NCBI GenBank assembly: GCA_015068065.1 | Contig: SVLE01000017.1 | Location: forward strand, 1-32,338 | Reading direction: 5' to 3' | DNA: 32,338 nt | Source of the DNA: Oscillospiraceae bacterium | GTDB taxonomy: Bacteria > Bacillota > Clostridia > Oscillospirales > Oscillospiraceae | Shown here: positions 1,852 to 23,214 of the stretch, in pieces | Numbering within the stretch: the stretch's first letter is position 1 | How the letters are laid out: the number at the start of each line of letters is the position of its first letter | Notes under the pieces: generated by a model | What the model was told of the DNA's origin: nothing | The model's database searches: none | The model's input: only the letters and a program-made list of their open reading frames with translations | Made by a program: the position numbers and the translations under genes

Positions 1852-1852
1852 T

Positions 1853-8373: not shown

Positions 8374-9732
8374 ATGAGCAAGTATCTTGAGCGAGTACTG
8401 GAAGCCACCAAGGCAAAGAACGCCAACGAGCCTGAATTCCTGCAGACTGTGGAAGAGGTTCTGACCTCTCTGGCCCCCGTGATCGAAGCCCACCCCGAAT
8501 ACGAGAAGGTCGCCCTGCTGGAGCGCATGGTCGAGCCTGAGCGTGTGATCGAGTTCCGCGTGACCTGGATGGATGACAACGGCCAGTGGCAGGTTAACCG
8601 TGGCTACCGCGTGCAGTACAACGGCGCCATCGGTCCCTACAAGGGCGGTCTGCGTTTCCAGTCCAACGTGAACCTGTCCATGATCAAGTTCCTGGGCTTT
8701 GAGCAGACCTTTAAGGATGCTCTGACCACCCTGCCCATCGGCGGCGCCAAGGGCGGTTCCGACTTCGATCCCGCCGGCAAGTCCGACGCGGAGGTCATGC
8801 GTTTCTGCCAGGCCTTCATGACCGAGCTGTATCGTCACATCGGTCCCGATGTTGACGTGCCCGCCGGCGACATGGGCGTGGGTGCCCGCGAGGTTGGATA
8901 TCTGTACGGCCAGTACCGCCGCATCGTCGGTGCTTTCAAGAACGGTGTCATCACCGGTAAGGGTCTGCCCTTCGGCGGCTCCCTGATCCGTCCCGAGGCC
9001 ACCGGTTACGGCGCTGTGTACTACCTGAACGAGGTTCTCAAGCACGAGAACGACAGCATCGAGGGCAAGCGCATCGCTATCTCCGGCTTCGGCAACGTGG
9101 CCTGGGGTATCGTGAAGAAGGTCGCTGAGCTGGGCGGCAAGGTCGTCACCCTGTCCGGTCCCGATGGCTACATCTATGATGCCGACGGTCTGGTGACCGA
9201 GGAGAAGATCGACTACATGCTGGAGATGCGCAACTCCGGCCGCAACAAGGTGCAGGACTATGCCGACAAGTTCGGCGTGCCCTTCTTCGCCGGCGAGAAG
9301 CCCTGGGGTCTGGGCTCCGACAAGGTGGACATCATCATGCCCAGCGCCATGCAGAACGACGTTCACTTGGATTCTGCCAAGAAGATCGCCGCTTCCGGCA
9401 TCAAGTACTACATCGAAGTGGCCAACATGCCCACCACCAACGACGCCCTGGAGTTCCTGAAGGAGCAGAAGCACATGATCATCGCTCCCTCCAAGGCTGT
9501 TAACGCCGGCGGCGTGGCCGTCTCCGCTCTGGAGATGAGCCAGAACTCCGAGCGTCTGGTTTGGGAGGCCGAGGAAGTGGATGCCAAGCTGAAGAGCATC
9601 ATGAAGAACATCCACGACTCTTCCGCCGCCGCCGCGGAGCGCTACGGCCTGGGTTACGACCTGGTGGCCGGTGCCAATATCGCCGGCTTCCAGAAGGTCG
9701 CCGATGCCATGATGGCTCAGGGTGTGTTCTAA
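8374..9732 (+). CDS. gdhA: NADP-type hexameric glutamate dehydrogenase
   Basis: This 452-residue protein has the usual length of bacterial hexameric GDH. The substrate-binding region shows GPYKGGLRFQSNVN, the lysine-bearing PIGGAKGGSDFDP and the PAGDMGVGAREVGYLYGQY block with the catalytic Asp. The Rossmann domain follows from about residue 230 (ISGFGNVAWG). It makes glutamate from 2-oxoglutarate and ammonia, the main ammonia entry in many anaerobes. NADP preference is inferred from the family match and is not proven. AGGAGG lies before the ATG. It is a single gene with its own promoter and terminator, and codon use is strongly biased, as in a highly expressed gene. Confidence 0.96.
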   Translation: MSKYLERVLEATKAKNANEPEFLQTVEEVLTSLAPVIEAHPEYEKVALLERMVEPERVIEFRVTWMDDNGQWQVNRGYRVQYNGAIGPYKGGLRFQSNVNLSMIKFLGFEQTFKDALTTLPIGGAKGGSDFDPAGKSDAEVMRFCQAFMTELYRHIGPDVDVPAGDMGVGAREVGYLYGQYRRIVGAFKNGVITGKGLPFGGSLIRPEATGYGAVYYLNEVLKHENDSIEGKRIAISGFGNVAWGIVKKVAELGGKVVTLSGPDGYIYDADGLVTEEKIDYMLEMRNSGRNKVQDYADKFGVPFFAGEKPWGLGSDKVDIIMPSAMQNDVHLDSAKKIAASGIKYYIEVANMPTTNDALEFLKEQKHMIIAPSKAVNAGGVAVSALEMSQNSERLVWEAEEVDAKLKSIMKNIHDSSAAAAERYGLGYDLVAGANIAGFQKVADAMMAQGVF

Positions 9733-9753: not shown

Positions 9754-9790
9754 AGCGAGCCGGGGCAATCGCCCCGGCTCGCTTTACTTT
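9754..9790 (+). terminator. Intrinsic terminator after gdhA
   Basis: A 13-base GC-rich stem (AGCGAGCCGGGGC and its complement) with an AATC loop is followed by a T-rich tail. Confidence 0.9.
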
Positions 9791-9805: not shown

Positions 9806-9838
9806 CACGGGCGTGTATGCATTGCATACACGCCCGTG
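9806..9838 (-). terminator. Intrinsic terminator of the 12-gene mdh-hdr-flx-frd-fum operon
   Basis: The 16-base arms are near-perfect around a single T. On the minus strand the stem is followed by CTTTTATTC. It lies 22 bases after the last operon gene, which supports a single transcript ending there. Confidence 0.85.
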
Positions 9839-9859: not shown

Positions 9860-10420
9860 TCAGTTCTGGGACTGACTCAGATAGGCCGCGCGGCCGGACT
9901 CGTAAAGGTTGTTGCCTTCGCAGTCAATGATGACGAACAGGGGCATTTCTTCCACGTACAGCTTGCGCAGGGCCTCTGCACCCAGATCCTCGTAGGCGAT
10001 CATCTCCGCCTTTTTGATGCACTTGGCCAGCAGAGCGCCGGCACCGCCGATGGCACCGAAGTACACGCCGGAATACTGCTTCATGGCGTCCACAACCTCG
10101 GGCAGGCGGGCGCCCTTTCCGATCATACCACGGGCACCCACACTCATCAGAGTGGGAGCGTAGGCATCCATACGGCCGCTGGTGGTGGGGCCGGCAGAGC
10201 CGATGACCTGACCGGGCTTGGCGGGGGTGGGACCAACATAGTAGATGGTGGCGTCCTTGGGGTCGAAGGGCAGGGACTCGCCCTTGGCGAGGCTCTCGCA
10301 CATGCGCTTGTGACCGGCGTCACGGGAGGTGTAGATAGTACCGGTTAGGTAGACGGTGTCGCCCGCCTTCAGGGTACGGGCCAGCTCCTCGGTCAGAGGC
10401 AGAGTAATATGCTTTTCCAT
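9860..10420 (-). CDS. Class I fumarate hydratase, beta subunit
   Basis: This 186-residue protein matches the C-terminal (beta) part of the iron-sulfur class I fumarases, which are split in two in many anaerobes. It has the swivelling-domain motifs VGPTPAKPGQVIGSAGPTTSGRMD and GKGARLPEVVDAM, and the IGGAGALLA loop. With the alpha subunit it interconverts malate and fumarate. It begins directly after the alpha-subunit stop with no gap, and it is the last gene of the operon. The closely related L(+)-tartrate dehydratase cannot be excluded by sequence alone, but the dehydrogenase and reductase genes upstream favour fumarase. Confidence 0.93.
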   Translation of the reverse strand: MEKHITLPLTEELARTLKAGDTVYLTGTIYTSRDAGHKRMCESLAKGESLPFDPKDATIYYVGPTPAKPGQVIGSAGPTTSGRMDAYAPTLMSVGARGMIGKGARLPEVVDAMKQYSGVYFGAIGGAGALLAKCIKKAEMIAYEDLGAEALRKLYVEEMPLFVIIDCEGNNLYESGRAAYLSQSQN

Positions 10421-11263
10421 TTACAGCACCTCCGTCTTGTGGCGGGTCACGTGGCAGTTGATGTTGATGGCGCAGGGCATGCCGGCGATGTGGGTGGGCA
10501 GAGTCTCAATGTTCAGGCCAATGGCCGTGGTACGCCCGCCGAAGCCCTGAGGACCGATACCCAGTGCGTTGATCTTGTCCAGCATCTCTTTTTCCAGATC
10601 CGCATAGAAGGGATCGGGATGACGGACATCCAAAGGACGCATGATGGCCTTTTTAGCCAGCAGAGCCGCCTTGTCGAAGGTGCCGCCGATACCCACACCC
10701 ACCACAATGGGGGGGCAGGGGTTGGGACCGGCCGCCTCTACGGTCTCGATGATAAAGTCCTTGATACCCTGCAGGCCGGCAGAGGGCTTGAACATGCGGA
10801 TAGCGCTCATGTTCTCACTGCCGAAGCCTTTGGGACCCAGCGTGATCTTCACCTTGTCGCCGGGGACGATTTCGGTGTAGAGCATGGCGGGGGTGTTGTC
10901 TCCGGTATTGCCCCGGCGGACGGGGTCGGCCACCACGGACTTGCGAAGATAGCCGTTGGTATAGCCACGACGCACGCCCTCGTCCACAGCTTCACGCAGG
11001 TCGCCATCCACAAAATGTACGTCCTGACCGATTTCCAGGAACACACAGGCCATGCCGGTGTCCTGACAGATGGGCACGTTCTCCGCGTCGGCGATATTGT
11101 AGTTTTCGATGATGTTGTCCAGCACGCCCTGAGCAATCTGGCCGTCCTCACAGGCACGGCAGGTCTCAATGGCACACTTCACGTCACCGGGCAGATGGGT
11201 ATTGGCTTCAATGCACAGACGCTCCACCACGTCGGTGATCTGATTCACACTGATCTCACGCAT
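10421..11263 (-). CDS. Class I fumarate hydratase, alpha subunit
   Basis: This 280-residue protein matches the 4Fe-4S-binding alpha subunit of class I fumarase. It shows CQDTGMACVFLEIG with the first cluster cysteine, a second conserved Cys in the PNPCPPIVVGVGIGGTFDKAA segment, and the GPQGFGGRTTAIGLNIE block near the end. The labile cluster makes the enzyme oxygen-sensitive, in keeping with a strict anaerobe. I chose ATG 11263 because AAGGAGG lies eight bases ahead and overlaps the stop of the flavoprotein gene. The open frame begins 11 codons earlier, inside that gene. It supplies fumarate to the reductase encoded immediately upstream. Confidence 0.94.
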   Translation of the reverse strand: MREISVNQITDVVERLCIEANTHLPGDVKCAIETCRACEDGQIAQGVLDNIIENYNIADAENVPICQDTGMACVFLEIGQDVHFVDGDLREAVDEGVRRGYTNGYLRKSVVADPVRRGNTGDNTPAMLYTEIVPGDKVKITLGPKGFGSENMSAIRMFKPSAGLQGIKDFIIETVEAAGPNPCPPIVVGVGIGGTFDKAALLAKKAIMRPLDVRHPDPFYADLEKEMLDKINALGIGPQGFGGRTTAIGLNIETLPTHIAGMPCAININCHVTRHKTEVL

Positions 11264-11276
11264 GGTCGGAGCCTCC

Positions 11277-12878
11277 TTATCTCTCGTGCCGGGCATACTG
11301 GGGCAGAAGCAGGGGAGAAACGCCCTGCTGCTCGATGCCGGCCTTGCTCAGCATTTTGGCATAGTCGTCCACATGCTTCAGGCCGGGGGTGCCCAGAGTA
11401 ACTTCCTTGGCCTTGGCGGCGGCAGCTTTACCGGCGTTGCGGCCGAAGACGATGATGTCCAGCAGGCTGTTGCCCATCAGGCGGTTGCGGCCGTGAATGC
11501 CGCCCACGGCCTCGCCGGCCACCAGCAGGTTGGGGATGGTTTTGGTGAAACCCTCGCCGCCAATCTCCAGACCGCCGTTCTGATAGTGCAGGGTGGGGTA
11601 GATCAGGATGGGCTGCTTGCGCATATCGATGCCGTAGTTCAGGTACATACGCAGCATGGCGGGGATGCGGCGCTCGATGGTACCCTCGCCGCCGATCATT
11701 TCGATCATGGGGGTGTCCAGCCACACACCGCTGCCCAGAGGGGTAGTCACACCCTTGCCGCGGGTGGAGCACTCGCGGATGATGGAGGCGGCGGACACAT
11801 CGCGGGTCTCCAGGGGATGCATGAAGGCCTCGCCCTCGCAGTTGACCAGCATGGCACCCAGAGAGCGTACCTTCTCCGTCACCAGCGCGCCAAAGATCTG
11901 GGAGGGGTAGGCAACGCCGGTGGGGTGGTACTGGATGGTGTCCTGATACAGCAGGGGAGCACCGGCGCGGTAGCCCAGGATCAGACCGTCGGCAGTGGCA
12001 CCGTAATGGTTGGAGGTGGGGAAGTTCTGGTAGTGCAGACGGCCGGCACCACCGGTGGCAATGATGACGGTCTTGGCGCGGGCGACGGAGTAGTCGTCGG
12101 TCTCCATGTTCAGCAACACAGCACCGGCGACCTGGCCCTTTTCGTCCTTGAGCAGTTCCACGGCAGAGGTAAACTCCACAACGGGAATGCCGCGGTTGAT
12201 GACCTCATCGCGCAGAGTGCGCATGATCTCGGCACCGGAGTAGTCCTTGCAGGCGTGCATACGCTTGCGGGAGGTGCCGCCGCCGTGGGTGGTGACCATG
12301 TTGCCCTCGGCGTCCTTATCGAACATAACGCCCAGCTCGTTTAGCCACTGGATGGCGTCGGGGGCCTCCATGACAAGGCGGCGCAGCAGCTCGGGACGGG
12401 CGGCGAAGTGGCCGCCGCCGAAAGCGTCCAGATAGTGCTGGACAGGGGAGTCGTTGGGCTTGTCAGCGGCCTGAATACCGCCCTCGGCCATCATGGTGTT
12501 GGCGTCGCCAATGCGCAGCTTGGTGACCATCATCACGTTGGCACCGGCCTCGTGGGCCTCAATGGCGGCGGAAGAACCGGCGCCGCCGCCGCCGATGACC
12601 AGCACATCCACATCGTAATCGATTTTGGACAGGTCGATGTCAGCGCCCAGCAGGCGGCTGTTGGAGTGGAGCAGATCGGTCAGCTCCACGGGGGCCTTCT
12701 GCCCCTTGTTGGGGCCAATCTTGATTTCTTTGAAGCCCTCAGCCCGGTAGTCGGGATGATAGGCCTTGAGTAGCTCATCTTTTTCTTCGGCGGTCATGCG
12801 GCGGGGCTCCATGCCCATGCGAGCGGCACGGGTAGCCTCCACCTTTTTAATGGATTCAAGCATATCAGGTGTAAACAT
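11277..12878 (-). CDS. FrdA-like fumarate reductase flavoprotein, soluble type
   Basis: This 533-residue flavoprotein belongs to the fumarate reductase/succinate dehydrogenase/L-aspartate oxidase family. About 88 N-terminal residues precede the FAD fold (LVIGGGGAGSSAA, 93-105). Then come AEGGIQAA, the QYHPTG active-site loop, RDVSAAS with the likely catalytic Arg, and HGRNRLMGNSLLD. The His that covalently holds FAD in E. coli FrdA (SHTVAAEGG) is replaced by Asn127 (ANTMMAEGG), so FAD should bind non-covalently. A FrdB-like gene lies 12 bases upstream and fumarase follows. No FrdC/FrdD anchor is present. The likely role is fumarate to succinate in the cytoplasm; another enoate is possible. 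Confidence 0.9.
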   Translation of the reverse strand: MFTPDMLESIKKVEATRAARMGMEPRRMTAEEKDELLKAYHPDYRAEGFKEIKIGPNKGQKAPVELTDLLHSNSRLLGADIDLSKIDYDVDVLVIGGGGAGSSAAIEAHEAGANVMMVTKLRIGDANTMMAEGGIQAADKPNDSPVQHYLDAFGGGHFAARPELLRRLVMEAPDAIQWLNELGVMFDKDAEGNMVTTHGGGTSRKRMHACKDYSGAEIMRTLRDEVINRGIPVVEFTSAVELLKDEKGQVAGAVLLNMETDDYSVARAKTVIIATGGAGRLHYQNFPTSNHYGATADGLILGYRAGAPLLYQDTIQYHPTGVAYPSQIFGALVTEKVRSLGAMLVNCEGEAFMHPLETRDVSAASIIRECSTRGKGVTTPLGSGVWLDTPMIEMIGGEGTIERRIPAMLRMYLNYGIDMRKQPILIYPTLHYQNGGLEIGGEGFTKTIPNLLVAGEAVGGIHGRNRLMGNSLLDIIVFGRNAGKAAAAKAKEVTLGTPGLKHVDDYAKMLSKAGIEQQGVSPLLLPQYARHER

Positions 12879-12890
12879 GGATTCCCCTCC

Positions 12891-13565
12891 TTACTTCTCG
12901 ATGTCCCGGTGGTTGTAGAGTTCCTGCATCTCGGTGATGGGCTTCTGCATGATGGCCTCGATCAGCTCGTCATAGGCACCGGAGTTGATCTCTTCCACGC
13001 GGGCTTCCAGATGCTCAGCCTTGGGAGCAATGTACTTGCCGGTCAGACGGCGGGCCAGCAGACCCACCATGGGATGGGAGATACCGGCGGGGCAGCGCAC
13101 GGAGCAGCAGCCGCAGCCCACACAGTCAAAGGACTCCTCGGCGCACTTTTCCAGCTCGCCCCGCTGAGCGTAGGCGATGTACTGCATGACGTTCAGCCCC
13201 TGAGTACAGGCCTTGGTACAGGCGTTGCAGCCGATGCAGGCGTACAGCTCGGGATACAGTTCCATCATCACACGCTGATCAGCCTTGATTTCGTTGATGT
13301 CGTAGGTGCGCTTGTCGGTGGGGAAGAAGGGGATGGAGGCCACATACATGCCCTCCTGCACCTGAGTCTGGCAGGCCAGACAGGTCTTCAGCTCGTTCTG
13401 TCCCTTGATGCGGTAGATGGTGGCGCAGGCACCACAGAAGCCGTGGCGGCAGCCGCAGCCGCGCTTGAGGGTATAACCGGCGTATTCCATAGCCGTCATG
13501 ATGGTCAGATCAGCGGGAACGGAATATTTTTTGCCGAAAAAGTAGACATTTACCATGTTTTCCAT
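12891..13565 (-). CDS. FrdB-like iron-sulfur subunit with 2Fe-2S and two 4Fe-4S sites
   Basis: This 224-residue protein starts with a plant-type 2Fe-2S domain (Cys39, 44, 47, 62, in GCRHGFCGAC). It then carries two cysteine groups: Cys110/113/116/120 and Cys148/151/154/158. In classical FrdB/SdhB the last cluster is 3Fe-4S because one Cys is missing. Here Cys151 fills that gap, so a second 4Fe-4S cluster is likely. The C-terminal tail is short and has no CCG domain. It should pass electrons to the FrdA-like flavoprotein encoded next. Archaeal thiol:fumarate reductase TfrB joins a comparable N-terminal half to an HdrB-like half; here HdrB is a separate gene in the same operon. AAGGAGG lies ten bases before the ATG. 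Confidence 0.88.
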   Translation of the reverse strand: MENMVNVYFFGKKYSVPADLTIMTAMEYAGYTLKRGCGCRHGFCGACATIYRIKGQNELKTCLACQTQVQEGMYVASIPFFPTDKRTYDINEIKADQRVMMELYPELYACIGCNACTKACTQGLNVMQYIAYAQRGELEKCAEESFDCVGCGCCSVRCPAGISHPMVGLLARRLTGKYIAPKAEHLEARVEEINSGAYDELIEAIMQKPITEMQELYNHRDIEK

Positions 13566-13580
13566 GTTGGCATTACCTCC

Positions 13581-14447
13581 TTAGTATTCGTTGGGCAGTT
13601 CGTCCACCTGGTCAAAGCGGAACACGGGGCCGTCCTTGCATACATACTTGGTGCCGATGTTGCAGCGGCCGCACTTGCCCACGCCGCACTTCATGCGCAG
13701 TTCCAGAGTGGTGTAGACCTGCTCCTTGGAAAAGCCCATCTCCTGCAGGGCCTGCAGGCAGAACTTGATCATGATGGGGGGACCGCACAGGATAGCGGTC
13801 TTATCGGTGGTAAAGCCGATCTCCTTCAGGTAGTTGGGAACGAAGCCAACATGGCCGTCCCAGCCCTCCTGCTCCCGGTCGATGGTCAGGTAGATGTTGA
13901 CACCGGGGATCTTGGACCAGACCTCTTCAATCTCCTTGCGCTGGACCAGATCGTCCGCGGAGCGGGAGCCGTAGAGGATGTCGATGGTGCCGTAATTGTC
14001 CCGGTTGTCCAGAACGTAGTTGATGACGGAGCGCAGAGGGGCAAGGGCGATACCGCCGGCGATGAACAGCAGGTTCTGACCCTTGAGCTCGGTCTCCACA
14101 GGGAAGTTGTTGCCGTAGGGGCCGCGGACCATGATCTCATCACCCACCTGCAGGGAATGCAGATGCTCGGTGAGCTGGCCGCAACGCTTGATGGAAAACT
14201 CCTGAAACTCCTTATTGGTGGGGGAGGAGGTGATGGAGAACATGGCCTCGCCCACACCGGGGGCACACACCATGGCACACTGGCCGGGCATATGCTCAAA
14301 GAGCTTGCCACCGCCGGGGGCATTGACCCGGAAGGTCTTCACGTCCGGAGTCTCGGTGCGGATATCGGTGATGATGCCCACCTGAGGGATCAGGGTGTCC
14401 CGCATAAAGCCGGGATTGTATTTACATTCATGCATCGGCTCAGACAC
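13581..14447 (-). CDS. FlxA-like NAD(P)H/FAD oxidoreductase subunit
   Basis: This 288-residue protein is of the ferredoxin-NADP reductase/AsrB/hydrogenase-gamma type. It has a FAD domain (FSITSSP at 70-76, RGPYGN at 108-113), a nucleotide domain (GGIALAPLRS at 131-140, CGPPIMIK at 221-228) and a C-terminal 2Fe-2S site (Cys254, 259, 262, 270). In the Flx-Hdr complexes of sulfate reducers this subunit oxidises NADH. It begins with GTG, with GGAGG seven bases ahead, two bases after the previous gene. It is the NADH entry point inferred for this operon. NADH over NADPH is assumed from the family. Confidence 0.9.
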   Translation of the reverse strand: MSEPMHECKYNPGFMRDTLIPQVGIITDIRTETPDVKTFRVNAPGGGKLFEHMPGQCAMVCAPGVGEAMFSITSSPTNKEFQEFSIKRCGQLTEHLHSLQVGDEIMVRGPYGNNFPVETELKGQNLLFIAGGIALAPLRSVINYVLDNRDNYGTIDILYGSRSADDLVQRKEIEEVWSKIPGVNIYLTIDREQEGWDGHVGFVPNYLKEIGFTTDKTAILCGPPIMIKFCLQALQEMGFSKEQVYTTLELRMKCGVGKCGRCNIGTKYVCKDGPVFRFDQVDELPNEY

Positions 14448-14449
14448 GC

Positions 14450-15472
14450 TTAACCCTCCTTTCCAAAGGCCTTGATGACCTTAACAATGTTCAGATGGCT
14501 GGGGCACTTGTCCACGCAACGACCGCAGCCCACACAGGAGAACATACCGTCGTTGTTGGCGGGGAAGTAGGCTAGCTTGTGCATGAAGCGTTGGCGGAAA
14601 CGTTGCAACTGGCTGGTGCGGTTATTGCCGTGAGCCATCATGGTGAAGTCGGAATACATGCAGCTGTCCCAGCAGCGGAAGCGCTGCACACCGTCGCCGG
14701 TGCTGTAGTCGCGGATGTCGTAGCACTGGCAGGTGGGGCACACGAAGGTGCAGGTGCCGCAGGCCAGGCAGGGCTTGTACAGCTGCTCCCAGATGGGGGA
14801 GTCAAAGCGGGTGTCTGCCGCTTCGGCGCCCCAGCCTTCCAGAGTCAGGTTGGCATAGGGCAACTTTTCCAGCATGGTGCGGATGGCAATCTTGGCCTGC
14901 TCCACAGTGTCCTCGTCAGCGTCCTCGAACAGATCGCGCAGAGCTTGTGTCAAGGAAGTGCCCTTGTCGGTTTTAGCCTCCCAGTAAAGCCAGTCGCCCA
15001 CCATCCAGGTGACCACATCGCCCTCGGGGGCGGCGGGATCAACGCCAAAGGCGGTACAGAAGCAGGAGGTATCGGGGCGGCCGCAGGCAAGGGCCACGAT
15101 GATACCGTGGGCCCGGCGGGCAGCGTAGTAGCTGTCCACGGGATCGGACAGGAACACCTTGTCCAGCACGGCCACACCCCGCACATCACAACCCTTCATG
15201 CCAAAGACCACGAAGGGCTTGTCGCACAGTTCCTGAGGAGTGATGGACAGCTTGCCGTCCTCGCGGTGGCAGGAGTACAGAGTCTCGCTCTGGGGGAAGA
15301 ACACATCCTTGGGGGATTTGACGGTTTTCAGGGTGTCCAGATCCACCTGAGCATCCTTCTGCCACAGGGCATAATCGGTCTGACTGGTGCTGCGCACAGG
15401 CAGAAACAGATCCTGAGTCTGGGCGATGCGCTCGTACAGGGCGGGCAGATCGGCTGTTTTGATCTTAAGCAT
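14450..15472 (-). CDS. 4Fe-4S dicluster protein, AsrA/FlxB-like
   Basis: This 340-residue protein resembles subunit A of anaerobic sulfite reductase and the matching Fe-S subunit of Flx complexes. Residues 1-230 form the conserved domain with FGMKGCDVRGVAVLD and ALACGRPDTSCFC. Two 4Fe-4S sites follow: Cys235/238/241/245 and Cys313/316/319/323. Such proteins relay electrons between the flavin subunit and the rest of the complex. It overlaps the upstream gene by eight bases. The name FlxB is assigned from gene order relative to the published flxABCD cluster, so B and C could be swapped. Confidence 0.82.
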   Translation of the reverse strand: MLKIKTADLPALYERIAQTQDLFLPVRSTSQTDYALWQKDAQVDLDTLKTVKSPKDVFFPQSETLYSCHREDGKLSITPQELCDKPFVVFGMKGCDVRGVAVLDKVFLSDPVDSYYAARRAHGIIVALACGRPDTSCFCTAFGVDPAAPEGDVVTWMVGDWLYWEAKTDKGTSLTQALRDLFEDADEDTVEQAKIAIRTMLEKLPYANLTLEGWGAEAADTRFDSPIWEQLYKPCLACGTCTFVCPTCQCYDIRDYSTGDGVQRFRCWDSCMYSDFTMMAHGNNRTSQLQRFRQRFMHKLAYFPANNDGMFSCVGCGRCVDKCPSHLNIVKVIKAFGKEG

Positions 15473-16442
15473 GGGTCAGGCCTCCTTCCGCCACCACAGA
15501 GGGCTCAGCGTCCTCCTGAGTAAAGCTGGTGAGGGGAGCCTTGGCATCTACGTCCTCGCCGGCCTGATACTCGCCGTACAGGCTGTTGATATCCTTGATG
15601 AACTTGCGGTTGAACAGGTGCAGGGGAATGCCCTGAGGACATACACGGCTGCACTCGCCGCAGTCGGTGCATCGTCCGGCCACATGGAAGGCGCGGATGA
15701 TGTGGAACATCTTTTCCTCGAAGGAGGTGGTGTTGGCCTTCTGAGTGGAGTCAAACTTGGTGGAGTCGAACACGCACTTGCGGCAGGAGCAGGCGGGGCA
15801 CACATTGCGGCAGGCGTTGCAGCGGATGCACTTGGACAGCTCACTCTGGAAGAAGGCAAACTTTTCCTCCGGGTTCATGGCTTCAATGGCGGCCACCTGA
15901 GCAAAGCGGTCGGCATCGGCGGTATCGGCAGATTCGCCGATCTGCTCGTCGCAGACCATGTGGGACTTGCCCTTACAGACGTGGCAGCGCTCCAGCATGG
16001 CGTCCTTATAGGCGACGGTGCGCTCGCCGTAGAGAGAGTCAATGGTGAGGTATTCCTCGGCGTTGGGATAACCGGCACCGTGAACATCCAGAATACCATC
16101 CGTACCCAGTTTGGAAACGGAAAGCTTGCCCTTACAGCCCACGCCGATGATGTAGGCTTTGTCCCGGTCCACCCGGTGTTCTTTCATCAGCTGGACAAAA
16201 CTGTAGCTGTCGCAGGGCTTGAGAAAAACCAGGGTCTTGCCCTCCAGCTTGGAGGCCTCGATCATATATTTGCTCAGGTTGGCGCCGCAGAAGCCGTTAT
16301 AGACAAAGTCCTTCAGCTCTTCAGCACTGTGGAAGAAAGCGGGTTCGGGGTCATAGACGTATTCGCCCTTCTTCCAGCCCAGCACACGCTGAACTTCGCC
16401 GCTTTCCAGCAGGGCCTTGGCCCGCGTGATCAGTTCTTGCAT
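15465..16442 (-). CDS. 4Fe-4S protein, FlxC-like (F420-hydrogenase-beta related)
   Basis: This 325-residue protein has an N-terminal domain like the beta subunits of F420 hydrogenases and related Fe-S proteins (VFLKPCDSYSFVQLM, GVGCKGKLS). Several extra Cys follow (CHVCKGKSHMVC). Then come two 4Fe-4S motifs: Cys205/208/211/215, with three more Cys just after, and Cys258/261/264/268. It is probably an electron-transfer subunit between FlxA and the FlxD/HdrA part. It overlaps FlxD by 13 bases and the next gene by eight, which supports a joint complex. The exact cluster content is unknown. Confidence 0.8.
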   Translation of the reverse strand: MQELITRAKALLESGEVQRVLGWKKGEYVYDPEPAFFHSAEELKDFVYNGFCGANLSKYMIEASKLEGKTLVFLKPCDSYSFVQLMKEHRVDRDKAYIIGVGCKGKLSVSKLGTDGILDVHGAGYPNAEEYLTIDSLYGERTVAYKDAMLERCHVCKGKSHMVCDEQIGESADTADADRFAQVAAIEAMNPEEKFAFFQSELSKCIRCNACRNVCPACSCRKCVFDSTKFDSTQKANTTSFEEKMFHIIRAFHVAGRCTDCGECSRVCPQGIPLHLFNRKFIKDINSLYGEYQAGEDVDAKAPLTSFTQEDAEPSVVAEGGLTHA

Positions 16443-16876
16443 CTCAGATCCCCCAATCGCACGTTTTTACCCAGAGAGCGGATCTTGGCCACGAAGGAGT
16501 TCATGGTCTCGGAAAACTTCACGCCCTCGGCGGCGGACACCCACTCCACGCGGGTGCGGCCGTTTTCCACGCCGATGAAGTCCAGCATGGAGAACAGGAG
16601 TGTCATTCTGCGCCGGGCGTAGTAGTTGCCGGTGGAGTAGTGGCAGTCGCCGGGGTGGCAGCCGCACAGGATCACACCGTCCGCGCCCTTTTCAAAGGCG
16701 CGCAGAATGAACATGGGATTGACACGGCAGGAGCAGGGCACGCGGATGATCTTCACATCCGCAGGATAGCTCAAGCGGCTGGAACCGGCCAGATCGGCGC
16801 CCGCGTAGCTGCACCAGTTGCAGCAGAAGGCCACGATTGTGGGGCGGAACTCTTCGTTATTCTGATTTACCGGCAT
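16430..16876 (-). CDS. FlxD/MvhD-type 2Fe-2S subunit
   Basis: This 148-residue protein matches MvhD, the small 2Fe-2S protein that hands electrons to HdrA in hydrogenase-Hdr and Flx-Hdr complexes. Conserved features are FCCNWCSYAGADLAG, RVPCSCRVNP and DGVILCGCHPGDCHY, followed by the YYARRR segment. The start at 16876 (MPVNQNN) has GGAGG ten bases ahead and overlaps the end of hdrA by ten bases. The frame extends a further 33 codons upstream, but that part lies within hdrA and does not look like the family. It is a strong marker that NADH, not hydrogen, feeds HdrA here, because no hydrogenase genes are adjacent. Confidence 0.93.
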   Translation of the reverse strand: MPVNQNNEEFRPTIVAFCCNWCSYAGADLAGSSRLSYPADVKIIRVPCSCRVNPMFILRAFEKGADGVILCGCHPGDCHYSTGNYYARRRMTLLFSMLDFIGVENGRTRVEWVSAAEGVKFSETMNSFVAKIRSLGKNVRLGDLRCKN

Positions 16877-18855
16877 ATCGCATCCACCTCCGCAATGATC
16901 TGTCTGTTGGAGAAGCCATGCAGGTCCATGGCACCGCTGGGGCAGGCCACGGTACAGGCGCCGCAGCCCTGGCACAGGGCGCTGTTGACGCTGGCCACAC
17001 GGCGCTCCTCGCGGACGCCGTGGTCGTTGACCAGACGCACCTCATAGGTGATGGCACCGTAGGGGCACACATTGGCGCAGGTGGAGCAGCCGTTACACAT
17101 CAGCTCGTCCGCCTGAGCGGTGCAGGGGTTGGTTTTCAGCTTATCCTTAGCCAGCAGGCCAATAACCTTTACAGCTGCTGCACCTGCCTGGGCCACGGTC
17201 TCGGGGATGTCCTTGGGACCCTGGCAAACACCGGACAGGAATACGCCGGCCGTGGGGGACTCCACCGGGCGCAGCTTGGGGTGAGCCTCGGTGAGGAAGT
17301 TGTTGGTGTCGATGCTGGCGGTGAGCATGGTGGCAATCTTGCGCACATCGGGGTTGGGCTCGATGGCGGTGGCCAGCACCACCATGTCGGCCTTCTTCAG
17401 AATCTGCTTGTTGTCCAGCAGATCCACGCCATGCACCAACAGGGAACCGTCGGGCTGGGGAGCAACCTTGCCTACCTGACCCTTGATATAGTTCACGCCG
17501 TAATCTTCCACCGCGCGGCGGTAGAACTCGTCAAAGTTCTTACCGGGGGTACGCACGTCGATGTAGAACACAGTCACGTTCACATCGGGATACTTGTCCC
17601 GGATGAGCATGGCGTGCTTGGCGGTGTACATGCAGCAGATTTTGGAGCAGTAGGGCTTGCCACGCTCGTCGGAGCAGCGGCTGCCCACGCACTGGATGAA
17701 CACGATCTCCTTGGGGGCCTTGCCGTCGGACAGGCGCTCCAGATGGCCCTTGGTGGGGCCGGCAGCATTCATGATGCGCTCCAGTTCCAGAGAGGTGATG
17801 ACGTCCTTGCTCTGGCCGTAGGCATACTCGCCGTACTGGTCCAGCTTGATGGTGTCAAATCCGGTGGCCACCACGATGGCACCGTAAGTTTCGGTGATGA
17901 TCTCGTCCTGCTGCTTGTAGTCGATGGCGCCGGCCTGACACACGGCGGCGCACACGCCGCACTTGCCGGTCTTAAACTTGATGCAGCTTTCCGTGTCGAT
18001 GACGGGAACGTTGGGGATGGCCTGAGCGAAGGGGGTGTAGATGGCGGAGCGGGTGTTCAGGCCGCGGTTGAACTCGTTGGCGGTCTTACGGGAGGGGCAC
18101 TTTTCCTGGCACACGCCGCAGCCGGTGCATTTGGTCATGTCCACCATGCGGGCCTTTTTGCGGATATCCACGGTAAAGTTGCCCACGAAGCCGGAGACCC
18201 TCTCCACTTCGCTGTATGTATGGATGGTGATGTTCTCGTGAGCGGCGGCTTCCACCATCTTGGGGGTCAGAATACAGGCAGAGCAGTCCAGGGTGGGGAA
18301 GGTCTTGTCCAGCTGAGACATTCTGCCGCCGATGGAGGGAGTCTTTTCCACGATGTCCACCTTGTAGCCCGCGTCGGCGATGTCGATAGCGGTCTGGATG
18401 CCTGCGATACCGCCGCCGATGACCAGTGCACGCTTGGTCACGGCGCTCTCGCCAGCCTGCAGGGGAGTGTTCAGATGGACCTTGGCCACCGCCGCACGCA
18501 TGAGGATGACGGCCTTTTCCGTAGCCTCGGTCATATCCTTGTGGATCCAGGAGCAGTGCTCACGCAGGTTGGCGATCTCCACCATATAGGGGTTCAGGCC
18601 GCAGCGCTCGGCGGCCTTGCGGAAGGTGGCCTCGTGCATTCTGGGGGAGCAGGAGCACACCACAATGCCGGTCAGGCCTTTTTCCGCGATGGCGGCGGCG
18701 ATGCGGGACTGGCCCGCCTCGGAGCACATATAGGGATAGTCTTCTGCGTGGCAGACGCCCGGCTCCTTCAGAGCCATTTCCGCCACTTTCTTTACATCCA
18801 CCGTTGCGGCGATATTACTTCCGCAATGGCAGACAAAAACACCGATTTTCTGCAA
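16867..18855 (-). CDS. hdrA: HdrA-like electron-bifurcating flavoprotein subunit
   Basis: This 662-residue protein has the full HdrA layout. It opens with an N-terminal FVCHCG domain, then a FAD-binding fold (VIGGGIAGIQTAI from about 145) and the GGRMSQLDKTFPTLDCSACILTPKM region. A CTGCGVCQEKCP cluster, further Cys near 290-306 and a thioredoxin-reductase-like part follow. The C-terminus has two 4Fe-4S sites (CNGCSTCANVCP, CQGCGACTVACP). HdrA holds the bifurcating flavin in known Hdr complexes. I chose TTG 18855 as start, giving MQKIGVFVCHCG. The GGAGG at 18864-18868 is eight bases from it, whereas the alternative GTG at 18864 overlaps the ribosome site. Confidence 0.95.
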   Translation of the reverse strand: MQKIGVFVCHCGSNIAATVDVKKVAEMALKEPGVCHAEDYPYMCSEAGQSRIAAAIAEKGLTGIVVCSCSPRMHEATFRKAAERCGLNPYMVEIANLREHCSWIHKDMTEATEKAVILMRAAVAKVHLNTPLQAGESAVTKRALVIGGGIAGIQTAIDIADAGYKVDIVEKTPSIGGRMSQLDKTFPTLDCSACILTPKMVEAAAHENITIHTYSEVERVSGFVGNFTVDIRKKARMVDMTKCTGCGVCQEKCPSRKTANEFNRGLNTRSAIYTPFAQAIPNVPVIDTESCIKFKTGKCGVCAAVCQAGAIDYKQQDEIITETYGAIVVATGFDTIKLDQYGEYAYGQSKDVITSLELERIMNAAGPTKGHLERLSDGKAPKEIVFIQCVGSRCSDERGKPYCSKICCMYTAKHAMLIRDKYPDVNVTVFYIDVRTPGKNFDEFYRRAVEDYGVNYIKGQVGKVAPQPDGSLLVHGVDLLDNKQILKKADMVVLATAIEPNPDVRKIATMLTASIDTNNFLTEAHPKLRPVESPTAGVFLSGVCQGPKDIPETVAQAGAAAVKVIGLLAKDKLKTNPCTAQADELMCNGCSTCANVCPYGAITYEVRLVNDHGVREERRVASVNSALCQGCGACTVACPSGAMDLHGFSNRQIIAEVDAICR

Positions 18856-18860
18856 AACGC

Positions 18861-19241
18861 TCACCTCCGGTACTTTCTGAACGCGCTCATCAGCAGCTGC
18901 TGAGGCGTTTCTTCGTCCAGCAGAGCGGGCACCTCGTCAGGGGAGAGGTAGGTCTGACCCCGCTGACGCAGCACAAGCTGCCGGGCCGCATCAATGAGCT
19001 TGCCGGGCTTGACGCCACGGGGGCAGCGCTCCACGCAGGCAAAGCAGCTCAGGCACTTGTAGAGGGATTTGGAGGCGGTCAGCGCCTCAATGTCATCCCG
19101 CTGAATATAAGACACGAACTGGTGGGGCTTGATGTCCATCTCGTTGAAGGAGGGGCAGGAGGCGGAGCACTTGCCGCACTTCATGCACTTGAGGGGGTTG
19201 ACACCGCTGATCTCGGCGATCAGCTCAGACTGCTTGCTCAT
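18861..19241 (-). CDS. hdrC: HdrC-like iron-sulfur subunit
   Basis: This 126-residue protein has two 4Fe-4S motifs (Cys19/22/25/29 and Cys63/66/69/73) and the KPHQFVSYIQ segment between them, typical of HdrC. It moves electrons from HdrA to HdrB. It overlaps hdrB by four bases (ATGA), a sign of coupled translation, and it ends just ahead of the hdrA start. It has no transmembrane segment, unlike HdrE/DsrM types, so the complex is cytoplasmic. Confidence 0.93.
   Translation of the reverse strand: MSKQSELIAEISGVNPLKCMKCGKCSASCPSFNEMDIKPHQFVSYIQRDDIEALTASKSLYKCLSCFACVERCPRGVKPGKLIDAARQLVLRQRGQTYLSPDEVPALLDEETPQQLLMSAFRKYRR
18864..18868 (-). promoter_or_regulatory. Ribosome site that decides the hdrA start
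   Basis: GGAGG overlaps an in-frame GTG at 18864 and so cannot serve it. It is eight bases from the TTG at 18855, which gives the family-typical N-terminus. Confidence 0.7.
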
Positions 19242-20023
19242 TTGTCCTCCTCCTTAATGCCAAGGGCTTCGGCCAATAGCTCGGTGAAGTAGACCACCGG
19301 CAGCTTGCCGCTCTTGGCCAGATTGTATTTGCACAGGGGGCAGGCGGTAACCAGGCACTCTGCCTGGAAACCGGCGGCACTTTCCGTAATGCGGTCACAC
19401 AGGCTGTTGGCCAGATCCGGGTCCTTGAGAGATATGTACCCGCCGCAGCATTCGTTGCGGTAGGGGTAGAGGACTGGCTCGGCACCCAGAGCGCGAATGA
19501 AGTCTTCCAGAATGGTGGGGTCCTCAGGATCGTCAAAGGCCATCACGCTGCTGGGACGCAGCAGCAGGCATCCGTAGTAGGCACCGATCTTGCGGCCGGT
19601 CAGGGGATTGACAACTTTCTTTTTCAGCTCGTCAAAGCCCACGACATCCCGCAGGACCTCCAGATAATGGAGGACCCTGGTCTCGCCGCAGTAGGGCTTG
19701 TCCAAACCCATATAATTGTTGGCACGGGTTTGGATGTCCGGCACATTGGCCATGTCATCGTTCACCCGCTTGAGCACGTGATAGCAGGCGGAGCACACGG
19801 CGACCAGATCCTGACCGTGCTCCTTGGCGTCGTTCAGTGCTCGGACAGAAGGCAGCTTGCTGGCGATTTCGTCGCTGCCCAACGGGTAGACGCCGCCGCA
19901 GCACTGCCAGTCTTTGATCTCGTCCAACTCAAAACCAAGAGCCAGAGCGCACTGTCTGGCCCAGCGGTCCAGATCCTTTGCCTTATTGCGCAGGGTGCAT
20001 CCGGGATAATAGCTGTATTTCAT
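19238..20023 (-). CDS. hdrB: HdrB-like subunit with two CCG domains
   Basis: This 261-residue protein carries two full cysteine-rich CCG motifs. The first is Cys9, Cys41-Cys42, Cys77, Cys80 (YPGC, WQCCGG, CSAC). The second reads YYGC, ECCGGY and CPLC. In methanogens these bind noncubane 4Fe-4S clusters that split a disulfide. All ligand Cys are kept, so the cluster chemistry is probably active. No coenzyme M or B is expected in a clostridium, so the partner is unknown: an unidentified disulfide, or direct transfer to the FrdB-like subunit. It starts 21 bases after the dehydrogenase gene. Confidence 0.94.
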   Translation of the reverse strand: MKYSYYPGCTLRNKAKDLDRWARQCALALGFELDEIKDWQCCGGVYPLGSDEIASKLPSVRALNDAKEHGQDLVAVCSACYHVLKRVNDDMANVPDIQTRANNYMGLDKPYCGETRVLHYLEVLRDVVGFDELKKKVVNPLTGRKIGAYYGCLLLRPSSVMAFDDPEDPTILEDFIRALGAEPVLYPYRNECCGGYISLKDPDLANSLCDRITESAAGFQAECLVTACPLCKYNLAKSGKLPVVYFTELLAEALGIKEEDK

Positions 20024-20044
20024 GGCTGATCCCTTCCTTACAGT

Positions 20045-20992
20045 TTAAATATTCAGGCCCTTGATAACTTCTTTCAGAGCATTGGCACTGGCCTGCAGTT
20101 TTTCAATCTCCTCGTCGGTCAGATCCACCGGCAGTTTGCCCTTGATGCCATCGGGACCCAGAATGGTCAGAGTGCTGATACACACATCCTCGATGCCATA
20201 CTCACCGTGCATCATGGAGGAAACGGTGGCTACGCTGTCATAGGCAGATACCAGCAGAGAGCAGATCTTCTTTACAGAAGCGGAGACGGCGTAGAAGGTG
20301 GCGCCCTTTTTGGCAATGATCTCGCCGCCGGACTTCTGGACATAACGCAGAGTATCTTCCGGATCAAAGGGGGTGTTGACAACGCCGCGCCGAATCATCA
20401 GATCCTCGAAGTCACGCAGTTGGCATCCGGAGACGTCGGCGCAGGACCAGGGAATGAAAGAGCTATCGCCGTGCTCACCAAAGACGTAAGCATGGATGTT
20501 CTGCTGAGCAATCTTCAGGTGATCGGCCAGATCGAAGCGCAGACGGGAGGTGTCCAGAATGGTGCCGGAGCCGATGATCTGGTGCTCAGGCAGACCGGAG
20601 ATTTTAGTGAACACATAGGTCATAATGTCAACGGGATTGCTGACAATGACATACAGTGCGTTGGGGGCAACGGAAACAATTTTTGGAGCGATATCCTTGA
20701 GAATATTTACATTGGTCTGAGCCAGTTCGATGCGGCTCTGGCCGGGCTTGCGTCCGATGCCGGAGGTGATGATCACGATATCGGAATCGGCGGCATCGGC
20801 ATAGTCGCCGGCAATGACGGAGATGGGCTCGCGGAAGCTGGTGCCCTGAACGATGTCCATGACCTCGCCCTCGGCCTTATCCTTGTTGATATCAATCAGC
20901 ACGATGTCGGATACGATATCTTCCAGAGACAGCGTATACGCAATGGTTGCACCTACGTTTCCGGCACCGATGATAGTTACTTTTCGATTCAT
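20045..20992 (-). CDS. LDH-fold dehydrogenase with malate-type specificity residue
   Basis: This 315-residue NAD-dependent protein is built like L-lactate dehydrogenase (IIGAGNVGAT, VLIDIN with Asp34 for NAD, GSGTILDTSRLR, YVFGEHGDSS). At the substrate-specificity position before KPG, lactate dehydrogenases carry Gln (NQKPGETR). Here it is Arg81 (IGRKPGQSR), as in malate dehydrogenases (RKPGxxR). It heads an operon with fumarase and fumarate reductase. I infer malate dehydrogenase, reducing oxaloacetate with NADH; automatic annotation would probably say lactate dehydrogenase. The ribosome site is a modest AAAAGGGG. The promoter carries Rex-like sites. Confidence 0.85.
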   Translation of the reverse strand: MNRKVTIIGAGNVGATIAYTLSLEDIVSDIVLIDINKDKAEGEVMDIVQGTSFREPISVIAGDYADAADSDIVIITSGIGRKPGQSRIELAQTNVNILKDIAPKIVSVAPNALYVIVSNPVDIMTYVFTKISGLPEHQIIGSGTILDTSRLRFDLADHLKIAQQNIHAYVFGEHGDSSFIPWSCADVSGCQLRDFEDLMIRRGVVNTPFDPEDTLRYVQKSGGEIIAKKGATFYAVSASVKKICSLLVSAYDSVATVSSMMHGEYGIEDVCISTLTILGPDGIKGKLPVDLTDEEIEKLQASANALKEVIKGLNI

Positions 20993-21031: not shown

Positions 21032-21049
21032 TGGTTATTTCTTTAACAA
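21032..21049 (-). promoter_or_regulatory. Rex-like operator, downstream copy
   Basis: On the minus strand this reads TTGTTAAAGAAATAACCA. The left half matches the clostridial Rex half-site TTGTTAA exactly, and the right half (ATAACCA versus TTAACAA) matches at five of seven positions. It lies just after the predicted transcription start. Confidence 0.55.
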
Positions 21050-21058
21050 ACACTTTTT

Positions 21059-21086
21059 ATTATAGTTATATTCTTAACAAAAACAA
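21059..21086 (-). promoter_or_regulatory. Promoter of the mdh-hdr-flx-frd-fum operon
   Basis: On the minus strand, TTGTTT (21081-21086), 16 bases and a perfect TATAAT (21059-21064) precede the first gene by about 60 bases. No other gene lies between this and the tRNA. The stretch 21087-21286 holds only AT-rich sequence and a small GGCGG/CCGCC hairpin at 21192-21206. Confidence 0.55.
21063..21080 (-). promoter_or_regulatory. Rex-like operator, promoter copy
   Basis: On the minus strand this reads TTGTTAAGAATATAACTA. The left half is an exact TTGTTAA, and the right half matches the inverted half-site at five of seven. It fills the spacer between the -35 and -10 boxes, where a bound repressor would block RNA polymerase. 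Its centre is 31 bases from the other copy, three helical turns. Confidence 0.6.
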
Positions 21087-21286: not shown

Positions 21287-21322
21287 ATGTCGCCGCAAGC
21301 GATATGACACTTGCGGCGACAT
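21287..21322 (-). terminator. Intrinsic terminator of tRNA-Leu
   Basis: The 13-base arms (ATGTCGCCGCAAG and complement) have a 10-base loop. On the minus strand a run of six T follows. It begins right at the tRNA CCA end. Confidence 0.9.
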
Positions 21323-23176: not shown

Positions 23177-23214
23177 AAAAATGACTTAATACGTCAAAGA
23201 TTGGGAGGATGACA

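What the first reader, a model, noticed from the sequence alone, without database searches (positions are those of the whole stretch)
9860..20992. Twelve-gene operon predicting a soluble, electron-bifurcating NADH:fumarate reductase joined to malate dehydrogenase and fumarase
Seen: one minus-strand run of twelve genes with overlaps or tiny gaps, one promoter region, and one terminator at 9806-9838. The order is LDH-fold dehydrogenase, hdrB, hdrC, hdrA, flxD (mvhD), flxC-like, flxB-like, flxA, frdB-like, frdA-like, fumarase alpha, fumarase beta. Known: FlxABCD-HdrABC complexes oxidise NADH and reduce ferredoxin plus a disulfide by flavin-based bifurcation, and thiol:fumarate reductase links Hdr-type chemistry to fumarate. 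Inferred: here the high-potential branch ends at the FrdAB-like pair, so fumarate reduction would generate reduced ferredoxin without quinone, cytochrome b or membrane anchor. The operon would carry oxaloacetate to succinate as one unit. I know of no described complex with this gene set, but I could not search.
Basis: partly seen in the sequence, partly recalled or inferred. Interest (0 to 1): 0.95.

Follow-up and report, generated by a model that had tools for sequence, protein, structure and literature searches.

The report
Soluble ferredoxin-making fumarate reductase operon
A gut bacterium carries twelve genes in one row that look like a soluble machine which turns oxaloacetate into succinate and uses part of the energy to charge ferredoxin; the idea was already proposed for another bacterium, and the same gene row turns up in other gut bacteria, including Blautia.

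Summary
In detail: twelve minus-strand genes (9860-20992), junctions of -13 to +21 bases, a terminator and a candidate promoter. The order is MDH-type dehydrogenase, hdrB, hdrC, hdrA, flxD, flxC, flxB, flxA, frdB, frdA, fumA, fumB. Sequence evidence favours a soluble NADH:fumarate reductase that also reduces ferredoxin: Hdr cluster motifs intact; a FrdA with the dicarboxylate active site but no covalent-FAD histidine; a FrdB with two full 4Fe-4S motifs and an HdrC-like domain; no frdC/sdhC gene over cut-off. In 66 of 66 related loci with room, the nine hdr-flx-frd genes keep this order.

It is not a first. A "succinate operon" with this content, and the bifurcating reading, is in print for Pseudoclostridium thermosuccinogenes (PMC7282089, citing a 2019 preprint I could not read), and tfrAB among flx-hdr genes for sulfur oxidisers (PMC6315080). 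I found no paper showing the activity.

What I add: spread in gut Bacillota; Blautia luti carries the genes although its recent energy budget assumes a plain NADH-dependent enzyme (PMC12773636); Rex-like operators before the operon (36 of 68 loci against 3 of 196 control upstream regions); and frdBA lying beside several kinds of partner.

The parts
20045..20992 (-). LDH-fold dehydrogenase, most likely malate dehydrogenase (mdh)
   Evidence: NCBIfam places it with L-LDH, but the specificity loop reads GRKPGQSR with Arg at LDH position 102; 53 of 54 sequences (window included) have GxxR[KR]PGQ[TS]R, one fits no pattern, 0 of 54 have Gln. The meaning of position 102 is recalled.
19238..20023 (-). 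hdrB, two intact CCG motifs
   Evidence: both motifs in 70 of 70; closest solved chains 9sfi_C, 8rvv_B, 8rvu_b, 5odc_B
18861..19241 (-). hdrC, two 4Fe-4S motifs
   Evidence: motifs in 70 of 70
16867..18864 (-). hdrA, flavin subunit expected to bifurcate electrons
   Evidence: HdrA2 model 794 bits over positions 1-640; 5odc_A E 6e-204 over residues 6-663
16430..16879 (-). flxD (mvhD); start moved in from the ORF start at 16975
   Evidence: Pfam FlpD 182.5 bits; matches positions 642-773 of the HdrA2 model, i.e. the part that HdrA lacks
15465..16442 (-). flxC-like, 4Fe-4S dicluster protein
   Evidence: Pfam Fer4_8; position and order kept in 66 of 66 loci
14450..15472 (-). flxB-like, AsrA / sulfhydrogenase beta type
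   Evidence: ShyB 199 bits, AsrA 143.6 bits, both under their cut-offs; solved relative 9nez_B
13581..14447 (-). flxA, FAD/NAD(P)H-binding input subunit
   Evidence: FAD_binding_6, NAD_binding_1 and DHODB Fe-S domains; hydrogenase gamma 232.8 and AsrB 193.1 bits, under their cut-offs
12891..13565 (-). frdB-like subunit: 2Fe-2S domain plus HdrC-like 2x[4Fe-4S] domain
11277..12878 (-). frdA-like fumarate-reducing flavoprotein
12615..12878 (-). N-terminal extension of FrdA (residues 1-88), candidate docking element
   Evidence: predicted with confidence (block pLDDT 86-97); before the flavin fold, which starts near residue 90; its role is a guess
10421..11263 (-). fumA, class I (Fe-S) fumarase alpha; likely start 11263
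   Evidence: NF004885 fumarate hydratase 414 bits over a 276 cut-off; tartrate dehydratase model 180.8, below 365
9860..10420 (-). fumB, class I fumarase beta
   Evidence: NF005310 'Fe-S-containing hydro-lyase' 290 bits over 238; Pfam Fumerase_C 195.5; tartrate dehydratase beta 94.7, below 264
21059..21086 (-). candidate promoter TTGTTT-16-TATAAT
   Evidence: read by eye; the consensus scan did not list it
21063..21080 (-). Rex-like operator 1 (12 of 14), between the -35 and -10 boxes
21032..21049 (-). Rex-like operator 2 (12 of 14), downstream of the -10 box
   Evidence: the two are the only matches with up to 3 mismatches in the window (11 of 100 shuffles also gave two or more)
9806..9838 (-). 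intrinsic terminator
   Evidence: 15-pair stem, T-rich tail

Best explanation
The operon encodes the reductive route from oxaloacetate to succinate as one unit. A dehydrogenase of LDH fold makes malate, a class I fumarase makes fumarate, and a soluble Flx-Hdr-Frd assembly reduces fumarate. NADH gives two electrons to FlxA; they pass through FlxB/FlxC and FlxD to the HdrA flavin, which splits them. One goes down to ferredoxin; the other goes through HdrC and HdrB to the HdrC-like FrdB and on to the FrdA flavin, where fumarate becomes succinate. Net: 2 NADH + fumarate + oxidised ferredoxin give 2 NAD+ + succinate + reduced ferredoxin, about -33 to -49 kJ/mol under standard conditions (my arithmetic from recalled potentials). 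Rnf can then turn the ferredoxin into an ion gradient. Shown here: genes, order, conservation, motifs, predicted folds, rnfC matches in the assembly. Inferred: physical complex, direct HdrB/HdrC-to-FrdB transfer, bifurcation, direction, regulation by Rex.
Confidence: 0.7

Rival explanations
1. Two-step route through a thiol: Flx-Hdr bifurcates and reduces a small disulfide at HdrB, and the dithiol then reduces fumarate through FrdBA, as in thiol:fumarate reductase, without a stable Flx-Hdr-Frd complex.
For: Both HdrB cluster motifs are intact in 70 of 70; five of 38 phylum-wide loci hold hdrC, hdrB and frdB with no hdrA found (four of them with frdA; the fifth, L148, is a 3.8-kb contig), an unfused counterpart of TfrAB; FrdA scores best with TfrA.
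Against: TfrB holds its own CCG domain; here it lies in HdrB, which would have to serve both halves. No gene for a thiol carrier is among the twelve named by HMM. FrdB's dicluster domain is HdrC-like, which suits direct docking.
Confidence: 0.15
2. FrdBA is a plain soluble fumarate reductase fed by reduced ferredoxin or NADH, and Flx-Hdr is a separate NADH:ferredoxin/disulfide enzyme that is only co-transcribed.
For: FrdBA occurs with no hdr gene detected nearby in 17 of 38 phylum-wide loci, e.g. beside pyruvate carboxylase (L144) or malic enzyme (L145). The B. luti authors write of a NADH-dependent fumarate reductase (PMC12773636).
Against: In the clade of the window the linkage is without exception in what I examined (66 of 66), the flxA-frdB gap is small at the median (23; largest 894), and the linkage recurs with other gene orders. 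Spending ferredoxin on fumarate would waste energy.
Confidence: 0.1
3. The operon serves biosynthesis: succinate is carried on to 2-oxoglutarate by a ferredoxin-dependent synthase and then to glutamate by the neighbouring glutamate dehydrogenase (reductive branch of the citric acid cycle).
For: A glutamate dehydrogenase gene converges on the operon at 8374-9732; no PF00285 citrate synthase in the window's assembly, its congener G032 or G056; in the double-HdrA group the genes next to frdBA look like kor and sucC (read by eye).
Against: The POR_N hits in 350-370 aa frames, which I take for KorA type, occur in 5 of 7 genomes but not in G000 or G032. In B. luti, whose genome holds the same nine genes and fumAB, succinate is a major fermentation product (PMC12773636).
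Confidence: 0.08
4. It is part of a quinone-linked membrane fumarate reductase whose anchor lies elsewhere in the genome.
For: In three phylum-wide loci a protein with two ferredoxin motifs follows frdBA; in L173 and L174 it also matches the formate dehydrogenase gamma (cytochrome b) model at 55 and 61 bits, under its 115.85 cut-off (L176 by motif only).
Against: No Sdh_cyt over cut-off and no Fumarate_red_C in 7 of 7 genomes (4 of 7 have Sdh_cyt hits well under the cut-off); the quinone-side 3Fe-4S pattern is replaced by a full 4Fe-4S motif in 54 of 54; no such gene among the twelve.
Confidence: 0.03

Closest known systems
Succinate operon of Pseudoclostridium thermosuccinogenes (PMC7282089; 2019 preprint cited there, not read)
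   Same: Fumarate hydratase, Flx-Hdr complex genes and two fumarate reductase genes in one operon; ferredoxin-coupled fumarate reduction already proposed; operon up about four-fold at low CO2, not significant for every subunit (passages read).
   Different: By locus tag numbers the fumarase lies on the far side of Flx-Hdr and a possible succinate transporter at the other end; here an MDH-type gene comes first and a class I fumarase last, with no permease. I did not compare the sequences.
tfrAB with flxABCD-hdrABC and korABCD in Escarpia laminata symbiont and Thioflavicoccus mobilis (PMC6315080)
   Same: Fumarate reductase genes among flx-hdr genes; a direct complex suggested (passages read).
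   Different: Gammaproteobacterial, within a reductive citric acid cycle cluster with korABCD.
FlxABCD-HdrABC of Desulfovibrio vulgaris (Ramos et al. 2015; seen as a reference, not read)
   Same: Same seven-gene set.
   Different: Its title names a NADH dehydrogenase/heterodisulfide reductase involved in ethanol metabolism. Sequences not compared.
Thiol:fumarate reductase TfrAB of Methanothermobacter (recalled; NCBIfam NF004900/NF004898)
   Same: Soluble; FrdA best matches TfrA; FrdB, HdrC and HdrB each match a part of TfrB (31.8, 28.2 and 35.2 bits, cut-off 385).
   Different: TfrB is one fused chain; here three. FrdA reaches 328 of the 718 bits required and matches TfrA only to position 411 of 546.
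8-methylmenaquinol:fumarate reductase (SdhABE)
   Same: HdrB scores as highly with its SdhE anchor (131.2 bits) as with HdrB (130.3), both under their cut-offs: an HdrB-like subunit coupled to an FrdAB pair has a precedent.
   Different: Membrane-bound and menaquinol-dependent (name of the model; rest recalled).

Membership tests
FlxABCD-HdrABC NADH dehydrogenase/heterodisulfide reductase | All seven subunits encoded together | tested here: met
   66 of 66 relatives with room
FlxABCD-HdrABC NADH dehydrogenase/heterodisulfide reductase | HdrA of the flavin, multi-cluster type; HdrB with two CCG motifs | tested here: met
   HdrA2 794 bits over model positions 1-640 of 777, under its 1100 cut-off; FlxD, a separate gene, matches the rest; 5odc_A E 6e-204; CCG motifs 70 of 70
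FlxABCD-HdrABC NADH dehydrogenase/heterodisulfide reductase | NADH oxidation coupled to ferredoxin reduction | not testable with these tools
   needs purified enzyme
Electron-bifurcating fumarate reductase operon as proposed for P. thermosuccinogenes | Fumarase, Flx-Hdr and a two-gene fumarate reductase in one operon | tested here: met
   content compared with the description in PMC7282089
Electron-bifurcating fumarate reductase operon as proposed for P. thermosuccinogenes | Sequence homology with that operon's FrdAB | not tested
   its sequence was not fetched
Thiol:fumarate reductase (TfrAB) | TfrB as one chain with 2Fe-2S, dicluster and CCG domains | tested here: not met
   the parts are separate genes frdB, hdrC, hdrB
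Thiol:fumarate reductase (TfrAB) | TfrA over its curated cut-off | tested here: not met
   328 bits, cut-off 718
Quinone-linked fumarate reductase / succinate dehydrogenase (complex II) | Cytochrome b or other membrane anchor | tested here: not met
   none in the operon; no Sdh_cyt over cut-off, no Fumarate_red_C in 7 of 7 genomes; the window's assembly is 87.6% complete
Quinone-linked fumarate reductase / succinate dehydrogenase (complex II) | 3Fe-4S pattern next to the quinone | tested here: not met
   a full C-x2-C-x2-C-x3-C motif instead, 54 of 54; the meaning of the pattern is recalled
Quinone-linked fumarate reductase / succinate dehydrogenase (complex II) | Covalent-FAD histidine in FrdA/SdhA | tested here: not met
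   Asn127 in 49 of 49; His motif in 0 of 79
Fumarate reductase / succinate dehydrogenase flavoprotein superfamily | Catalytic His/Arg set | tested here: met
   His318, Arg338, His431, Arg466 by alignment to SdhA chains, invariant in 49; pattern in 78 of 79 of the close set
L-lactate dehydrogenase against malate dehydrogenase (first gene) | Gln (LDH) or Arg (MDH) at position 102 | tested here: met
   MDH state: Arg in 53 of 54 sequences from this operon position, window included, Gln in 0 of 54; rule recalled; HMM prefers LDH

The most novel reading that the evidence does not exclude
FrdBA is a plug-in fumarate-reducing tip that docks on HdrC-type partners through an HdrC-like FrdB, and evolution has wired it to several donors: the Flx-HdrABC bifurcating engine, a double-HdrA engine beside what look like kor genes, HdrCB alone, and a dicluster protein with a cytochrome-b-like part. 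In gut Bacillota such as Blautia the first version would make succinate formation an unrecognised source of reduced ferredoxin, worth about 0.56 ATP per succinate through Rnf with the stoichiometries of PMC12773636 (my arithmetic), under NADH-sensing Rex control.
Probability: 0.5. Interest if true: 0.75.

Novelty: new member of a known kind. Interest (0 to 1): 0.52.

Why it matters
If true, succinate formation in such gut Bacillota conserves energy without a quinone or a membrane fumarate reductase. Their energy budgets would then be too low: for B. luti at 0.42 succinate per glucose I get about 0.23 ATP per glucose more than the 3.05-3.15 published. B. luti is a cultured species in which the proposal can be tested directly. 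The family also offers a natural series for asking how an Hdr engine hands electrons to a tip other than a heterodisulfide.

Tried and rejected
Membrane fumarate reductase: rejected on the iron-sulfur pattern and on searches for anchors. L-aspartate oxidase: NadB models score below TfrA, the gene has an frdB partner, and no nadA or nadC is among the twelve genes named by HMM; the Glu that I recall as specific for NadB seems not to be there, but I made no alignment with NadB. Propionate route: no methylmalonyl-CoA mutase in 7 of 7 genomes. Biosynthetic 2-oxoglutarate role: weakened by the missing KorA-type hit in G000 and G032. Tartrate dehydratase for fumAB: below cut-off. A gene fusion of frdB with an hdr part was looked for through the open-frame lengths of the 39 FrdB matches (225-320 aa); none has room for a whole extra subunit. 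Paper searches that gave nothing: 'bifurcating fumarate reductase', the locus tag I recalled for a Clostridium thermocellum MDH, Rex with fumarate reductase. The 2019 preprint is not held. The flavoprotein fold list is filled by residues 68-527, so it does not test whether the N-terminal extension has a known fold.

Counts and rows dropped: the genome scan kept the best 80 of 547 stretches; the 66 of 66 leaves out 14 loci that end too close to frdB. L025 and L018 come from the same contig by length (G032:C38, 55,807 bases). The Rex count uses 68 relatives plus the window (37 of 69; 36 of 68 without the window). Alignment A3 (FrdB) holds the window, 34 of 38 phylum-wide, 15 of 80 close and 4 of 6 first-relative sequences; A4 (FrdA) holds the window, 32 of 38, 12 of 80 and 4 of 6. 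I chose the close ones by hand; L151, L153, L171 and L172 were left out of both without a test; L148 has no frdA hit, and L164's frdA was dropped by my script's strand check although its ORF is open. Loci share ancestry, so the counts are not independent events. The class labels in the tree were assigned by me.
Full report
What is there. Twelve minus-strand ORFs fill 9860-20992. With the starts of flxD and fumA moved inward, the junctions are -13 to +21 bases. A stem of 15 pairs with a T-rich tail ends the operon at 9838-9806, and the convergent glutamate dehydrogenase gene has its own terminator-like stem at 9754-9783. Upstream lies a promoter read by eye, TTGTTT-16-TATAAT, and beyond it a tRNA-Leu gene.

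Who the genes are. HMM scans give a fumarase alpha over its cut-off and a beta subunit over the cut-off of 'Fe-S-containing hydro-lyase', both clearly above the tartrate dehydratase models; a FrdA closest to TfrA but far under its cut-off; a FrdB with a 2Fe-2S domain and a dicluster domain; FlxA of the AsrB/hydrogenase gamma kind; FlxB of the AsrA/sulfhydrogenase beta kind; an FlxC with a dicluster domain; FlxD as FlpD/MvhD; HdrA of the HdrA2 kind; HdrC and HdrB. HdrA aligns over nearly its whole length with HdrA of a solved heterodisulfide reductase/hydrogenase complex (5odc_A, E 6e-204). The first gene is an LDH-fold enzyme that NCBIfam calls L-LDH. Its specificity loop reads GRKPGQSR; Arg instead of Gln at LDH position 102 is the mark of malate dehydrogenases (recalled). 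Of 54 sequences from this place in the operon, window included, 53 carry it, one fits neither pattern and none carries Gln.

Conservation. FrdA with its N-terminal extension was found in 7 of 60 genomes of the kinship set, the window's included, and in only 2 of 37 of its own genus. All six others hold hdrBCA-flxDCBA-frdBA in the same order with an mdh homologue upstream. A scan of 84,980 species genomes with the FrdB alignment gave 547 related stretches, of which 80 were kept: Blautia, Mediterraneibacter, Oliverpabstia, Hominisplanchenecus, Anaeromassilibacillus and many Oscillospiraceae and Lachnospiraceae MAGs. The other 467 stretches were not examined. Of the 80, 66 have room for the nine core genes, and 66 of 66 have them in order on one strand; of 54 with wider room, 53 have fumA and fumB, 42 mdh and 41 all three. 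In L020-L023 fumAB was not found in the fetched stretch; a fumC gene sits between mdh and hdrB in all four (Pfam for L021; 89-90% identity in the other three). An Asp-Al_Ex type permease gene follows in 5 of the 6 first relatives; the P. thermosuccinogenes operon has a possible succinate transporter at its end.

A modular family. In 398 genomes drawn from the phylum, FrdB was found in 39, the window's included. Of the 38 others, 16 have hdrA and flxD nearby: 14 of these have hdrB and hdrC too, and the other two (L158, L172) lie on contigs that end nearby. Five of the 16 have flxA, B and C; in the other eleven no flxA or flxB was detected, and in the five I read by ORF (L157, L160, L163, L166, L170) a second, giant HdrA-like gene lies near hdrA. 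Another 5 of 38 have hdrC and hdrB with no hdrA found (L148 on a 3.8-kb contig), and 17 have no hdr hit. Among the 17: pyruvate carboxylase precedes frdBA in L144, and L149 and L151 have an upstream gene of the same length and like start; a malic enzyme precedes it in L145, with genes of like size and start in L139 and L146; in L173 and L174 a protein with two ferredoxin motifs and a weak cytochrome b match follows. Next to the double-HdrA loci lie genes that look like kor and sucC, read by eye. In the FrdA tree the window's clade is one side of a branch (92/87), and the other loci with the flx set fall elsewhere: L143, L147 and L152, with frdBA before hdr, and L161 apart. So the association recurs with different gene orders, either gained more than once or kept through rearrangement.

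Genome context. Seven genomes with the operon were searched by family. No Sdh_cyt over cut-off (4 of 7 have weak hits up to E 0.1, all under it), no Fumarate_red_C, no methylmalonyl-CoA mutase. rnfC is over cut-off in 6 of 7, twice in the window's assembly. ATP-type PEPCK is found in 3 of 7, in the window's assembly as two pieces on two contigs. Citrate synthase PF00285 is in 4 of 7, not in G000, G032 or G056. Succinate as an end product fits best.

Regulation. The 300 bases before the first gene hold a Rex-like operator (TTGTTAANNNNTTAACAA, recalled) with at least 12 of 14 matches in 37 of 69 loci against 0.8% of shuffles. In the same loci 36 of 68 operon upstreams against 3 of 196 other upstream regions reach that score (loci related, operon upstreams richer in A+T: 35% against 42% G+C). 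The window has two such sites, the only two in 32 kb with up to three mismatches; two or more also came up in 11 of 100 shuffles, but here both lie within 90 bases of the first start, one between the -35 and -10 boxes. Rex was found in 5 of 7 genomes, but not in the window's own incomplete assembly. An NADH-sensing repressor fits an NADH-consuming operon.

How it most likely works. NADH enters at FlxA; FlxB/C and FlxD pass electrons to HdrA; the HdrA flavin sends one to ferredoxin and one through HdrC and HdrB to FrdB and FrdA. With E0' values of -320 mV, +33 mV and -420 to -500 mV (recalled), the sum is -49 to -33 kJ/mol. Every step after the gene content is inferred.

What is already known. 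PMC7282089 (passages read) names the succinate operon of P. thermosuccinogenes, assumes ferredoxin-linked fumarate reduction "as proposed previously", reports about a four-fold rise at low CO2, and notes that added H2 nearly abolished succinate in earlier work. Its source, a 2019 preprint, is not held. PMC6315080 (passages read) suggests a complex of Flx-Hdr with OGOR and thiol:fumarate reductase. No paper with 'bifurcating fumarate reductase' is in the library, and the listings showed no biochemical test that I could see; subscription journals are mostly not held.

What is new here, as far as these searches show. Blautia luti MSK.16.34 carries the nine genes with fumAB and without mdh in front (L093), and 5 of 5 Blautia genomes with the operon have no Sdh_cyt over cut-off, though its own and B. 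glucerasea's have a hit just below it. The 2026 study of B. luti fermentation (PMC12773636; passages, outline and section 18 read) finds succinate as a major product, fumarate reduction with reduced methyl viologen at 0.5-1.0 U/mg, and strong frdAB transcription. Its theoretical pathway uses a NADH-dependent fumarate reductase, and the main text does not hold the words heterodisulfide or Hdr. I take its frdAB to be this pair; the strain may differ and I did not check the gene. If the enzyme bifurcates, each succinate brings one more reduced ferredoxin for Rnf. The Rex-like operators and the set of alternative partners are also additions.

Verdict. A real, strongly conserved operon whose proposed mechanism is likely but unproven and already in print for another species; interest comes from its spread in cultured gut bacteria and from the direct test this allows.

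Noticed in passing
window 8374-9732 (+): NADP-type glutamate dehydrogenase gene (659.6 bits over a 536 cut-off) converges on the operon; both have terminator-like stems between them.
   Followed up: partly
window 22199-23092 (-) and 23209-24411 (+): A LysR-type regulator, about 1.2 kb upstream of the operon, diverges from a class III CoA-transferase gene. CoA-transferases of this class also lie next to frdBA in L145 (HMM) and L140 (by eye).
   Followed up: partly
window 21322-21405 (-): tRNA-Leu gene with a terminator-like stem just after it, upstream of the operon.
   Followed up: no
G001-G036 and G046: Only G032 of 36 other species of the genus has the operon's FrdA, while G046 of another family has it at 87% identity: patchy, possibly moved sideways; many of the genomes are incomplete.
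   Followed up: no
L052: Two hdrA matches one after the other within the operon (81% and 89% identity): a duplicated or split hdrA.
   Followed up: no
L050/L051 and L061/L063: Two contigs of the same MAG each hold a copy of the operon or its frd end; duplication or mixed bin.
   Followed up: no
L157, L160, L163, L166, L170, e.g. L166:11955-15251: HdrA-like protein of about 1060-1490 aa with more than one HdrA-type stretch near hdrA, hdrB, hdrC and frdBA, with kor- and sucC-like genes nearby.
   Followed up: partly
L141 4006-5268 (- in the turned stretch): A 420-aa protein with two ferredoxin and two CCG motifs lies on the opposite strand near fumAB and frdBA.
   Followed up: no
window 907-2806 (-): Split transketolase pair (C-terminal and N-terminal parts as two genes).
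   Followed up: no
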